Shown here: piece after piece, positions 21,798-49,023 of the stretch
How the letters are laid out: each line of letters begins with the position of its first letter
Position numbering within the stretch: position 1 is the first letter of the stretch
Origin: an uncultured Bacteroidales bacterium
Lineage (GTDB): Bacteria; Bacteroidota; Bacteroidia; Bacteroidales; Muribaculaceae
Length of the DNA: 51,578 nt
NCBI GenBank assembly: GCA_902793405.1
Contig: CADBDH010000018.1
Span: 1-51,578 of the forward strand
Direction: 5' to 3'
Made by a program: the position numbers and the translations under genes
Notes under the pieces: model-generated
The model's input: the letters and a program-made list of their open reading frames with translations, nothing else
Database searches by the model: none
What the model was told of the DNA's origin: nothing

Positions 21798-21939
21798 TGC
21801 AATAGCCGTCGCACACTGAATGAAGCCATATTATCCAAGCTGGCCCATCAGTCCAAAACACCGCACGACTGAGGTAAATCACTAGACACATCCCCAAAGG
21901 CAAGAAAGACACAATTTGAAACCCCATTACCTGTCGTCT

Positions 21940-21968
21940 GTTACTGTATTACGTTATAATATAGTGAC
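21940..21968. promoter_or_regulatory. inverted repeat, candidate activator site
   Basis: GTTACTGTATT (21940-21950) and AATATAGTGAC (21958-21968) form 11-bp arms with 9 matches around a 7-nt spacer. The centre lies about 51 bp before the -24 GG of the sigma-54-type promoter, a usual place for a bacterial enhancer-binding protein. Confidence 0.5.
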
Positions 21969-22003
21969 GGAATGATTGTGTAATTCTGGCATGAGCGAAA
22001 AGC

Positions 22004-22019
22004 TGGCACGCTTTTTGCT
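22004..22019 (+). promoter_or_regulatory. sigma-54 (-24/-12) type promoter
   Basis: TGGCACGCTTTTTGCT fits the RpoN consensus TGGCACG-N4-TTGCW exactly. GG is at 22005-22006 and GC at 22017-22018, 12 bp apart. Transcription would begin near 22030, about 55 nt before the ATG at 22086. I see no TAnnTTTG element in 21798-22085. Confidence 0.75.
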
Positions 22020-22085
22020 GTAACGATTTAATCCACAACTCACGTCAACTTAAAAATAGACCGATAGACAGTTTTATCAAACAGA

Positions 22086-22943
22086 ATGAGACAACTTAAA
22101 ATCACAAAGGCAATCACCAACCGCGAAAGCGCCTCGCTGGATAAGTACCTCCAGGAAATCGGCCGTCAGGACCTGATCAGCGTCGATGAGGAGGTTGAAC
22201 TGGCTCAGCGCATTCATCAGGGCGACCAGGCAGCACTTGACAAACTCGTCAATGCCAACCTGCGCTTTGTCGTGTCGGTCGCCAAGCAGTACCAGAACCA
22301 AGGACTGAGCCTGTCGGACCTCATCAACGAGGGCAATGTGGGCCTCATCAAGGCTGCACAGAAGTTTGACGAGACCCGAGGGTTCAAGTTCATCTCCTAT
22401 GCTGTGTGGTGGATTCGCCAATCCATCCTGCAGGCCATTGCCGAGAACTCCAACATGGTGAGAGTGCCCCTGAACCAGGCTGGCCTCATCAACAAGGCCA
22501 ACAAGGCCCAATCCCGCTTCGAGCAGCTGCACGAGCGTCGTGCCTCGGCCGAGGAGCTTGCCGAGGAGCTCAATCTGCCCATCGACAAAGTCATCGAGAC
22601 CATGAAAATCAATACACGCTCGGTATCGGTCGACGCCCCCTTTGCCGACGGCGAGGACAACAGTTTGCTCGACGTGCTTCCCAACAACGACTCACCCCTT
22701 GCCGATTCCACATTGAACCAGGAATCGCTGTCCAAGGAGATCAACCGTGTGCTGGCACAGCTCACCCCGCGCGAGAGGGACATCCTCAAGATGTTCTTCG
22801 GCATCGGCTGCCAGGAAATGACGCTCGAAGAGATCGGGGCAAAATTCGACCTGACGCGTGAGCGCGTTCGCCAAATCAAGGAGAAGGCCATCCGCCAGCT
22901 GAAAGGTCACAAGAGTCAGCTGTTGCTGTCCTATTTGGGCTAA
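22086..22943 (+). CDS. RpoD-type sigma factor paralog, candidate alternative sigma
   Basis: 285 residues, co-linear with the second copy at 23078 and with Bacteroidota RpoD. Regions: 1.2 (about 12-50), 2.1-2.4 (about 53-128, [18 protein letters not shown] and [16 protein letters not shown]), 3 (about 130-215) and 4 (about 225-285, with [21 protein letters not shown]). Differences from the neighbour cluster at residues 117-139 ([20 protein letters not shown] against [20 protein letters not shown]), the part that reads the promoter -7/-10 element. Region 4.2 is unchanged. Together with the sigma-54-type promoter upstream, this suggests an alternative or conditionally expressed sigma. It could also be a redundant duplicate. 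Confidence 0.85.
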
Positions 22944-23044
22944 AAAGGCCCGTTCGATGTGCCATTTGTGGCTGTTTCAACAGCCGATTTGAAACTTTTA
23001 TTGATTTTTTCTGGCAATTACTTGGTGAATTCAAGTAATTGCAG

Positions 23045-23052
23045 TATCTTTG
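23045..23052 (+). promoter_or_regulatory. -7 promoter element for rpoD
   Basis: TATCTTTG with TTG at 23022-23024 (20-bp spacing), 25 bp before the ATG. It allows rpoD to be expressed independently of the upstream paralog. Confidence 0.65.
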
Positions 23053-23077: not shown

Positions 23078-23935
23078 ATGAGACAACTTAAAATCACAAA
23101 ATCCATTACTAACCGCGAGAGCGCATCCCTCGACAAGTATCTTCAAGAAATCGGCCGCAAGGAACTCATTACGGTCGATGAGGAAGTCGAGTTGGCACAG
23201 CGCATTCGTCAAGGGGACCAAGCAGCACTGGACAAGCTTGTCAGCGCCAACTTGCGTTTTGTCGTTTCGGTCGCAAAACAGTACCAGAACCAGGGATTGA
23301 GTCTTCCCGACTTGATCGACGAGGGTAATCTGGGCCTTATCAAGGCAGCGCAAAAATTCGACGAGACGCGAGGCTTCAAGTTCATCTCCTATGCTGTGTG
23401 GTGGATTCGCCAATCCATTCTCCAGGCTCTTGCCGAGCAGGCTCGCATTGTCAGGCTTCCCCTCAACCAGGTGGGCTCGATCAACAAGATCAGCAAGGCT
23501 CAGGCCCGTTTCGAGCAAGAGCATGAGCGCCGCCCCTCGGCCGAGGAGTTGGCCGACCGTCTCGACATCCCTGTTGACAAAATCAGCGACACCATGAAGG
23601 TGTCGGGCCGCCACGTGTCGGTGGACGCGCCTTTTGTCGAGGGTGAGGACAACAGCCTGCTGGACGTGCTGCCCAACAACGATTCCCCCATGGCCGACTC
23701 GACGCTTAACCAAGAGTCGCTGGCCAAGGAGGTGAACCGTGCGCTGGATCAGCTCAGCCCCCGCGAGAGGGACATCCTCAAGATGTTCTTCGGCATCGGC
23801 TGCCAGGAAATGACGCTCGAGGAGATTGGTGCCAAGTTTGACTTGACGCGCGAGCGCGTGCGCCAAATCAAGGAGAAGGCCATCCGCCGCCTCAAGGGTC
23901 AGAAGAGCAAACTGCTCAAGGCCTATTTGGGTTAA
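23078..23935 (+). CDS. rpoD: housekeeping sigma factor RpoD
   Basis: 285 residues, the compact Bacteroidota form that lacks an extended region 1.1. From memory it matches the canonical Bacteroides sequence through region 2.4 to 3 ([23 protein letters not shown]) and 4.2 ([18 protein letters not shown]). It directs RNA polymerase to TTG/TAnnTTTG promoters such as those listed throughout this window. It lies 134 bp after its paralog, has its own -7 promoter and is followed by a clear terminator, so it can be expressed separately. Confidence 0.93.
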
Positions 23936-46919: not shown

Positions 46920-46989
46920 GATGAGGGGATTTTTCGTTAATAAAACTTATTGTTGAGGGGTGGTGGCACGGTGTTTGCGGGATTTTTAG

Positions 46990-46997
46990 TAAATTTG
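46990..46997 (+). promoter_or_regulatory. -7 promoter element for parE
   Basis: TAAATTTG, 31 bp upstream of the ATG at 47029. Confidence 0.55.
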
Positions 46998-47028: not shown

Positions 47029-49023
47029 ATGTCACAAGACAAGCAGAATCAGATAGAAGAGCCCGCCATGGATGCGGTTCAGCAGCAGCAACAGCCTGCA
47101 GGCAGCGACTTTGGCGGCTATGAGAAGCTCATCACGCTTTCGCCGCGTGAGCACATCCGCCAGCGCCCGGGCATGTACATCGGCAAGCTGGGCGACGGCT
47201 CCCAGGATGACGACGGTATCTACGTCCTCATCAAGGAGGTCATCGACAACAGTATCGACGAGTTCAACACGGGCTATGCCAAGCCCAACATCGACATCGA
47301 CGTGGTAGACGGCATGGTCACCATACGTGACTACGGCCGCGGCATCCCCCTGGACCAGGTCAAGGACGCGTCCAGCAAGATGAATACCGGTGCAAAATAT
47401 GACACGCAGACCTACAAACGCTCGGTGGGTCTGAACGGTGTGGGCATCAAGGCGGTGAACGCCCTGTCCACCGAGTTCTACATCCGCAGCGTGCGCGACG
47501 GGCAGTGCTCGTCGGTGCTCTACAGCGAGGGTCTGGTCAAGGAAGAGAGCGGCATCGTCACCGCCAGCGAGGGCGAGGATAACGGCACGCTCGTGCGCTT
47601 CAAGCCCGACAACAGCATCTTCAAGAACTACGAGTTCCGCGAGGAAATCATCGAGCAGATGATCAAGAACTACTCTTACCTGAACACGGGCCTGACGCTC
47701 ACGTTCAACGGCAAGAAGTACCACTCGCGCAACGGTCTGAGCGACCTGGTGAAAGAGAACATGACCAACGACCCGCTGTACCCACTGATGCACTTCACGG
47801 GCGACGACATCGAGGTGGTCATCACCCACGCCGCACAGCTGGGCGAGGAGTTCTACTCGTTTGTCAACGGCCAGCACACGACGCAGGGCGGTACGCACCA
47901 GAGCGCCTTCCGCGAGGCCCTGTCGAGGACCATCAAGGAGTTCTACGGCAAGAACTTTGAGTACAGCGACATCCGCAACGGCATCGTCGCCGCCATCAGC
48001 ATCAAGGTCGAGGAACCCGTGTTCGAGTCACAGACCAAGATCAAGCTGGGCAGCAGCATCATGTGGAAAGACGGCCCCACCATCTACAAGTACATCAACG
48101 ACTTCATCAAGAAGGAGCTGGACGACTACCTGCACAAGGCCCCCGAGACCGCCGAGGTGCTGCTGAAGAAAATCCAGGATAATGAACGCGAGCGCAAAGC
48201 CATCGCCGGCGTAAGCAAACAGGTGCGCGAAAACGTCAAGAAAGCCACCCTGCACAACGACAAGCTGCGCGATTGCCGTGTCCACTTCAACGACACGCGC
48301 GCGCCCAAGGACAATGACCGCCGCGACGAGACCAGCATCTTCATCACCGAGGGTCTGAGCGCAAGCGGCTCTATCACCAAAATCCGCGACGTGGAGACTC
48401 AGGCCGTCTTCTCGCTGCGCGGCAAGCCGTTGAACACCTACGGCCTCGACCCCAAGAGGGTCATCATCAATCAGGAGTTTGCCATGCTGCAGTCGGCTCT
48501 CAACATCGAGGACGGCATCGACGGCCTGCGCTACAACAAGGTCATCATCGCTACCGATGCCGATGTCGACGGCATGCACATCCGCCTGCTGCTGTTGACC
48601 TACTTCCTGCAGTTCTGTCCCGAGCTCATCAAGACGGGACACCTCTTCATCCTGCAGACGCCCCTCTTCCGCGTGCTCAACAAGAAGGACGCCAAGCGCA
48701 AGAACCGCTCAACCAAGCGCGAGGCCAAGCCGCAGAAGGTAGAGACCTACTACTGCTACAGTGACGAGGAGCGTCTGGCCGCCCTCGACAAGCTGGGCGA
48801 TGCTGCCGAGATTACCCGATTCAAAGGTCTGGGTGAAATCTCGCCCGACGAGTTCAAGGACTTCATCGGCCCCGAGATGCGTCTCGACCGCGTGAAGCTG
48901 AGCAAGGACGACTCGGTGAAGCAGATGCTCGCCTTCTTCATGGGCAAGAACACCATGGAGCGCCAGAATTTCATTATTGACAACCTAGTGAACGAAGATG
49001 ATGAAGACATCACAGTGCATTGA
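47029..49023 (+). CDS. parE: DNA topoisomerase IV subunit B (type IIA, GyrB/ParE family)
   Basis: 664 residues. The ATPase (GHKL) domain covers about 28-240: [41 protein letters not shown] and the Walker-like [14 protein letters not shown]. The transducer follows, then the TOPRIM domain with [11 protein letters not shown] (about 440) and [18 protein letters not shown], and the C-terminal [18 protein letters not shown]. It relaxes and decatenates DNA with ParC, which is not in this window. Assignment to ParE over GyrB rests on TEGLSAS (GyrB usually reads EGDSA) and the short TOPRIM insert. Its 3' end overlaps coaD by 26 bp. Confidence 0.9.

What the first reader, a model, noticed from the sequence alone, without database searches (positions are those of the whole stretch)
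21940..22086. Perfect sigma-54 promoter with an upstream dyad drives an RpoD-family sigma factor gene
Seen: TGGCACGCTTTTTGCT at 22004-22019 fits the RpoN -24/-12 consensus with exact GG-GC spacing, 67 bp before the ATG of a sigma-70-type gene. Neither this leader nor the rest of 21798-22085 shows the TAnnTTTG element found before most other genes here. An 11-bp-arm inverted repeat (9 of 11 matches) is centred at 21954, about 75 bp before the inferred start, where an AAA+ enhancer-binding activator would bind. Inference: a two-step cascade (signal, enhancer-binding protein plus RpoN, then a second sigma-70-type factor). I know of no described Bacteroidota system in which an RpoD paralog is placed under RpoN.
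Basis: partly seen in the sequence, partly recalled or inferred. Interest (0 to 1): 0.78.

Follow-up and report, generated by a model that had tools for sequence, protein, structure and literature searches.

The report
RpoN promoter on duplicated housekeeping sigma gene
In a genus of Bacteroidales bacteria, a spare copy of the housekeeping sigma factor gene carries a promoter of the kind used by the alternative factor RpoN, and single-copy relatives often carry that promoter on the housekeeping gene itself, which suggests an inducible supply of the main transcription factor that became split between two genes.

Summary
TGGCACGCTTTTTGCT (22004-22019) is a full -24/-12 match, 66 nt before an RpoD paralog (22086-22943). 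The genome has one rpoN and one clear activator.

Of 101 genus genomes, 85 gave a readable rpoD or paralog start. There, 25 of 26 paralog leaders carry the motif (at least 10 of 12 positions), against 1 of 25 canonical rpoD leaders of tandem genomes; reverse strands give 0, shuffles about 0.3 per set. Unexpectedly, 34 of 58 single-copy rpoD leaders carry it too, 22 of them 42-74 nt before the ATG and 19 of those 29-32 nt upstream of TAnnTTTG. RpoN input to sigma-70 supply is thus not tied to the paralog, and tandem genomes divide the two promoters between the copies. Outside the genus it is rare: 1 of 313 other family genomes, 0 of 392 others in the order scan.

Matches also precede groES, dnaK and a Clp ATPase gene, so an RpoN protein-quality-control regulon that includes RpoD supply is my best reading. 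No transcription data exist; the signal is inferred.

The parts
22004..22019 (+). -24/-12 (RpoN-type) promoter of the rpoD paralog; start of transcription predicted near 22030
   Evidence: same motif in 25 of 26 paralog leaders of the genus, including the T-run at positions that the scan left free
22086..22943 (+). RpoD paralog, 285 aa plus stop
   Evidence: dN/dS 0.026-0.062 in six close paralog pairs
23045..23052 (+). TATCTTTG, -7 element of the TAnnTTTG-type promoter of canonical rpoD
   Evidence: a TAnnTTTG 23-39 nt before the ATG in 25 of 25 canonical leaders of tandem genomes
23078..23935 (+). Canonical rpoD (primary sigma factor), 285 aa plus stop
   Evidence: The 84 canonical starts read in the genus are 91-100% identical to it (called canonical at 88% or more), while the 25 other paralogs are 52-94% identical to 22086-22943
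21940..21968 (.).
   Evidence: Present, weakly above shuffles, 10-14 of 22 letters at best in the other 25 paralog leaders
23014..23042 (+). 12-pair inverted repeat between the two sigma genes, just before the -7 element of rpoD
   Evidence: terminator-like scan: 3 found, shuffles mean 1.7; role unknown

Best explanation
22004-22019 is a working RpoN promoter that drives an extra, inducible copy of the Bacteroidota primary sigma factor. The likely chain: the single clear enhancer-binding protein of the genome activates RpoN-RNA polymerase at a set of protein-quality-control genes and at this gene; the paralog is made beside the constitutive RpoD and directs RNA polymerase to a similar, perhaps shifted, set of TAnnTTTG promoters while the condition lasts. 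In many single-copy relatives the same input acts on rpoD itself through two closely set promoters; in tandem genomes the paralog has the RpoN promoter and rpoD the housekeeping one. Shown by sequence: the motif, its conservation, its division between the copies, rpoN, the activator, constraint on the paralog. Inferred: activity of the promoter, the signal, what the paralog transcribes, and the order of evolutionary events.
For: Motif in 25 of 26 paralog leaders against 1 of 25 canonical leaders of tandem genomes; 34 of 58 single-copy rpoD leaders; reverse strands 0 of 26, 0 of 25, 0 of 58; shuffle means 0.29, 0.36, 0.34 per set; 2 sites in 93,558 bases of CDS. The scan ignored positions 8-11, yet T fills 24, 19 and 23 of 24 paralog sites at positions 9-11. 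A stricter motif-plus-start pattern hits 23 of 101 genus genomes, backward control 0. In 14 of 22 single-copy proximal leaders the motif lies exactly 30 nt before TAnnTTTG, 29-32 nt in 19 of 22. rpoN in 98 of 101 genomes; in the own genome PF00158 gives one strong match (223 bits) with Fis-type HTH. Motif also ahead of groES and a Clp ATPase (exact) and of dnaK and a Bax1-I family gene (one mismatch); the dnaK site recurs in 10 of 101 genomes at one spacing window, backward control 0. Paralog under purifying selection, dN/dS 0.026-0.062 in six pairs. Regions 2.3-2.4 and 4.2 of paralogs keep 88% and 82% of the rpoD consensus.
Against: No transcript start or expression data. G077 lacks the motif (best 9 of 12, 210 nt away, GC lost) and G078 has it only 197 nt upstream. 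Twenty-seven of 58 single-copy genomes have neither a proximal nor a distal site although all 27 have an rpoN match. No activator binding site was found: enriched words upstream are A/T runs and terminator-like dyads. PF00158 gives three further matches over cut-off (27-39 bits); one is the Clp ATPase, two were not examined. The stress link rests on neighbours of motif matches that I chose to inspect (16 exact, 21 with one mismatch) without an enrichment test; several exact matches precede metabolic genes (panC, a semialdehyde dehydrogenase, a cobalamin adenosyltransferase) and 4 of 16 lie inside ORFs over 110 aa. One tandem pair outside the sampled genus genomes (L093) has TAnnTTTG, not the motif, before the paralog. 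The paralogs of G045, G035 and G022 have a TAnnTTTG 77, 137 and 196 nt upstream.
Confidence: 0.78

Rival explanations
1. The RpoN promoter is real but general: RpoN tracks growth or nutrient state, not protein damage, and the paralog simply adds to the RpoD pool under that state (dosage control rather than a stress response).
For: Exact motif matches also precede panC, a semialdehyde dehydrogenase gene and a cobalamin adenosyltransferase gene and a near-exact one a GyrB/ParE-type gene; the activator has no recognised N-terminal sensor domain, its AAA+ domain starting at residue 19.
Against: groES, dnaK and a Clp ATPase all have matches, PMC12316311 (passage of section 19) reports enrichment of chaperone genes among predicted sigma-54 targets in Bacteroidota, and PMC9723704 (passages) ties the F. 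psychrophilum sigma-54 regulon to protein quality control and envelope stress.
Confidence: 0.35
2. The paralog has a distinct promoter specificity (an RpoS-like second sigma factor with its own regulon), not just more RpoD.
For: Paralogs diverge most in the C-tail (49% of the rpoD consensus kept) and regions 3.1-3.2 (58%), then 3.0 (65%) and 4.1 (66%); residues nearly fixed in rpoD are replaced in most paralogs (K28, D81, S134, V187, A222, K281).
Against: Regions 2.3-2.4 and 4.2, the main -10 and -35 readers, are among the best kept (88% and 82%). Paralogs do not share one new set of residues.
Confidence: 0.35
3. Origin: the dual promoter on single-copy rpoD is secondary (paralog lost, its leader joined to rpoD), rather than ancestral and later partitioned.
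For: Tandem, proximal and distal states interleave on the rpoD DNA tree (22 changes for four states; shuffled labels 43.3); nine singles carry the motif 126-206 nt upstream.
Against: No paralog coding remnant at E 0.01 between the motif and rpoD in the 12 single-copy genomes with motif 126-277 nt away; the exact 30-nt spacing in 14 of 22 proximal leaders is not expected of many separate joins. One origin of the paralog is not rejected (AU p 0.777), so the order stays open.
Confidence: 0.3
4. Chance match to a short consensus.
For: Loose matches are common: 52 with up to 3 mismatches in the window against 62.9 expected.
Against: Conservation in 25 of 26 paralog leaders with 0 on the reverse strand and 0.29 in shuffles.
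Confidence: 0.02

Closest known systems
Rrp2-RpoN-RpoS cascade of Borrelia burgdorferi (PMC2940757: abstract and outline seen)
   Same: An activator and RpoN transcribe a second sigma-70-family gene.
   Different: There the target is rpoS; here it is a tandem duplicate of the primary sigma gene in Bacteroidota and, in single-copy relatives, rpoD itself. The activator here has no recognised receiver domain.
Heat-shock promoter of E. coli rpoD (sigma-32 dependent; recalled, no source read; one search gave only a listing)
   Same: An alternative sigma factor adds a stress-responsive promoter to the gene of the primary sigma factor.
   Different: RpoN instead of sigma-32, a promoter set close to the housekeeping one, and division between two copies in tandem genomes.
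Predicted sigma-54 regulons (PMC12316311: section 20 read, passages of others; PMC9723704: passages)
   Same: Chaperone and protein-quality genes as sigma-54 targets in Bacteroidota; COG0568 (sigma-70/sigma-32) named among COGs with a consistent sigma-54 association, no phylum given.
   Different: Neither names rpoD or an rpoD duplicate of Bacteroidota as a target in the parts that I read.
Sigma A of Bacteroides fragilis (Vingadassalom 2005, 2007; seen only as references, and described in a passage of PMC12632263)
   Same: Primary sigma factor without region 1.1 that reads TANNTTTG promoters.
   Different: No tandem copy and no RpoN promoter mentioned in what I read.

Membership tests
RpoN (sigma-54) dependent promoter | GG and GC doublets at the -24/-12 spacing within TGGCACGN4TTGCW | tested here: met
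   12 of 12 positions
RpoN (sigma-54) dependent promoter | rpoN and an AAA+ activator in the genome | tested here: met
   PF04552 one match over cut-off; PF00158 223 bits with Fis-type HTH
RpoN (sigma-54) dependent promoter | Motif kept at orthologous genes | tested here: met
   25 of 26 paralog leaders
RpoN (sigma-54) dependent promoter | Upstream activator binding site | tested here: inconclusive
RpoN (sigma-54) dependent promoter | Start 12 nt downstream of GC; RpoN dependence | not testable with these tools
   No transcript data
Sigma-70 family, group 1/2 (RpoD-like) | Regions 1.2, 2, 3 and 4 | tested here: met
   All four Pfam models over cut-off
RpoD equivalog of NCBIfam | Curated score cut-off | tested here: not met
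   277.8 against 555 bits for PRK05658; canonical rpoD of this genome fails too (283.5), so the test does not discriminate
RpoS equivalog of NCBIfam | Curated score cut-off of TIGR02394 | tested here: not met
   256.7 against 378.7 bits: it may work like RpoS but is not filed as RpoS

The most novel reading that the evidence does not exclude
In this genus the primary sigma gene was itself an RpoN target with two closely set, mutually exclusive promoters; duplication split the two inputs, giving a constitutive RpoD and an RpoN-controlled second RpoD that retunes housekeeping transcription during protein-quality stress. This would be promoter subfunctionalisation of a primary sigma factor with intermediate states still alive.
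Probability: 0.5. Interest if true: 0.85.

Novelty: new variant of a known kind. Interest (0 to 1): 0.74.

Why it matters
Here an RpoN-type promoter on sigma-70 supply is conserved in much of a genus, and dual-promoter, distal-promoter and split tandem states coexist in related species. That makes promoter partition after duplication of a central regulator directly testable, and gives an entry point to what RpoN does in Bacteroidales, on which my searches found little.

Tried and rejected
Chance match: rejected by the comparison across the genus. Enhancer dyad: best match in the other 25 paralog leaders 10-14 of 22 letters. Paralog remnants between distant motifs and rpoD: none at E 0.01 in 12 genomes. 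A conserved activator site: k-mer and dyad counts over 60 leaders gave A/T runs and terminator-like words, above mononucleotide shuffles. An RpoN match near rpoN itself: none at 9 of 11 or more on the plus strand of L229, the only strand checked. Single origin of paralogs: neither shown nor rejected (AU p 0.777; long branches). Literature: searches (0 papers) listed no paper that by title or start of abstract describes RpoN control of rpoD in Bacteroidota; the lists are capped and the library holds open-licence papers only. One search looked for the E. coli rpoD heat-shock promoter; the one paper opened (PMC3415461) had the terms only in its reference list.

Limits: 16 of 101 genus genomes are not in the counts: 12 gave no match and 4 only partial genes (G002, G026, G053, G084), of which G053 holds a start that I did not fetch. 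G039, whose paralog is a fragment without start, was set apart from the counts. Leaders of G004 rpoD (82 nt), G089 paralog (208) and G080 rpoD (202) are short. The genus genomes are 57-100% complete and mostly in many contigs (G060 is one contig). For downstream genes I looked at the 16 exact places, 2 of the 4 one-mismatch loci and 19 further one-mismatch places that I picked from its capped list. Of 8 pairs named for dN/dS, 6 paralog pairs had equal length; dS is high (0.7-1.9) in them. (leaders against tandem regions) was cut in the output and is used for no count. Trees have many weak forks.

Full report
WHAT IS THERE. The gene behind it (22086-22943, 285 aa) has sigma-70 regions 1.2 to 4. 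A second gene, 84% identical, follows at 23078-23935; these are the only two matches of the paralog protein in this genome. The downstream copy is the canonical rpoD: the 84 canonical starts read in the genus are 91-100% identical to it (assigned at 88% or more), while the other 25 paralogs are 52-94% identical to the upstream gene. Canonical rpoD has TATCTTTG at 23045-23052, the Bacteroidota -7 element (TANNTTTGY in a passage of PMC12632263); the paralog leader has none.

IS IT AN RpoN PROMOTER. One rpoN and one clear activator gene are present. The activator, L004 793-2055 -, has the AAA+ domain from residue 19 and a Fis-type HTH, so no recognised sensor domain; it sits beside an lptE gene and an acyltransferase gene. 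PF00158 gives three further matches of 27-39 bits, one of them the Clp ATPase. TGGCACGN4TTGC occurs 16 times exactly in the genome; with up to one mismatch there are 122 matches against 67 for the pattern read backwards. Of the 16 exact sites, 12 lie outside ORFs over 110 aa by a simple test.

THE COMPARISON. I searched the paralog protein in 61 and a further 40 genus genomes, together the 101 that one search reports for the genus, and read leaders from 85. Scoring 12 positions, with GG and GC required and at least 10 matches within 300 nt: paralog leaders 25 of 26; canonical rpoD in tandem genomes 1 of 25, that one (G045) weak and 140 nt away; single-copy rpoD 34 of 58. Reverse strands: 0, 0 and 0. 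Means of 100 shuffles: 0.29, 0.36 and 0.34. Of the 34, 22 lie 42-74 nt before the ATG, 9 are 126-206 nt and 3 are 218-277 nt away. The scan left positions 8-11 free, yet the paralog sites show the T-run of the known consensus (recalled) there: 24, 19 and 23 of 24 at positions 9, 10 and 11. The misses are G077 (best 9 of 12 at 210 nt, GC lost) and, for the expected distance, G078 (197 nt). TAnnTTTG is within 45 nt of the ATG in 25 of 25 tandem canonical leaders and 57 of 58 single-copy leaders, and occurs anywhere in the 300 nt in 3 of 26 paralog leaders (77, 137 and 196 nt away).

DUAL PROMOTERS. In 19 of 22 proximal single-copy leaders the motif ends 29-32 nt before TAnnTTTG (14 at exactly 30). 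At that spacing the RpoN start would fall close to the -33 element of the housekeeping promoter, so the two holoenzymes should exclude each other (inference). Decayed versions are visible by eye in G038 (L083), G051 (L051) and G073. In the rpoD DNA tree the states tandem, proximal and distal interleave, though less than with shuffled labels (22 changes against 43.3), and 22 of the 27 genomes without a site fall in one group of 31 rows that also holds 6 tandem and 3 proximal ones. All 27 have an rpoN match, so loss of the site is not explained by loss of rpoN. In three tandem genomes (G004, G022, G061) the paralog lies downstream of rpoD and still has its own motif.

RANGE. The combined pattern (motif, 50-80 nt, sigma start) hits 23 of 101 genus genomes, 1 of 313 family genomes of other genera (G287; 21 of 84 same-genus in that draw), and 0 of 392 genomes other than the own one in the order-wide draw. 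The pattern fixes spacing and start codons, so it undercounts. Contig lengths and coordinates equate G036 with CADCFN010000013 (RUG14590) and G013 with CACZNP010000025 (RUG12782), both labelled uncultured Bacteroidales, and G100 with CAMVPC010000051 (labelled Prevotellaceae). I do not name the genus. A tandem pair in L093 (labelled Muribaculaceae) has a TAnnTTTG before each copy and no motif.

THE PARALOG PROTEIN. It is under purifying selection (dN/dS 0.026-0.062 in six pairs), though less strictly than rpoD in the same genomes (0 to 0.005). Against the rpoD consensus the 26 paralogs keep 88% in 2.3-2.4, 83% in 2.1-2.2, 82% in 4.2, 70% in 1.2, 66% in 4.1, 65% in 3.0, 58% in 3.1-3.2 and 49% in the C-tail (region borders are mine, by recalled homology). 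I infer that the -7/-33 reading heads are kept, while promoter escape, discriminator contacts and activator contacts may differ.

LIKELY ROLE. Motif matches precede groES (exact, 314 nt), a Clp ATPase (exact, 53 nt), dnaK (one mismatch, 136 nt) and a Bax1-I gene (one mismatch, 38 nt); the dnaK site recurs in 10 of 101 genomes within one spacing window. PMC12316311 (section 20 read, passages of section 19) and PMC9723704 (passages) link sigma-54 in Bacteroidota to chaperones and protein quality control. Other matches precede metabolic genes, and no enrichment test was made, so the stress reading is the best one, not a proven one.

VERDICT. A real RpoN-type promoter on sigma-70 supply, conserved in much of one genus.

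Noticed in passing
46964-46997: TGGCACGGTGTTTGCG (11 of 12 positions) 10 nt before TAAATTTG, ahead of a GyrB/ParE-type gene (47029-49023): another possible RpoN plus housekeeping dual promoter.
   Followed up: partly
L093 418-2355: Muribaculaceae MAG NALB_7823_26 has a tandem rpoD paralog (68% identical to rpoD here) with a TAnnTTTG promoter and no RpoN-type motif.
   Followed up: partly
L066 2572-3439: Canonical rpoD of G027 is in two pieces beside an intact paralog; real break or assembly error not resolved.
   Followed up: no
23014-23042: 12-pair inverted repeat directly upstream of the -7 element of rpoD; a similar palindrome is visible in the G048 leader.
   Followed up: no
G040 and G023 genomes: No rpoN match (completeness 92% and 62%), and their rpoD leaders carry weakened motifs (TGGTATGATTTTTGCT, CGGCACGATTTTTGCC): possible loss of the regulator and decay of the site, or incomplete assemblies.
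   Followed up: no
Paralog leaders of G033, G027, G047, G056, G008: A terminator-like hairpin (AAAAAAGTTGGC... ...CCAACTTTTTT) lies just upstream of the RpoN-type motif, seen by eye, so the paralog is probably insulated from the upstream gene there.
   Followed up: no
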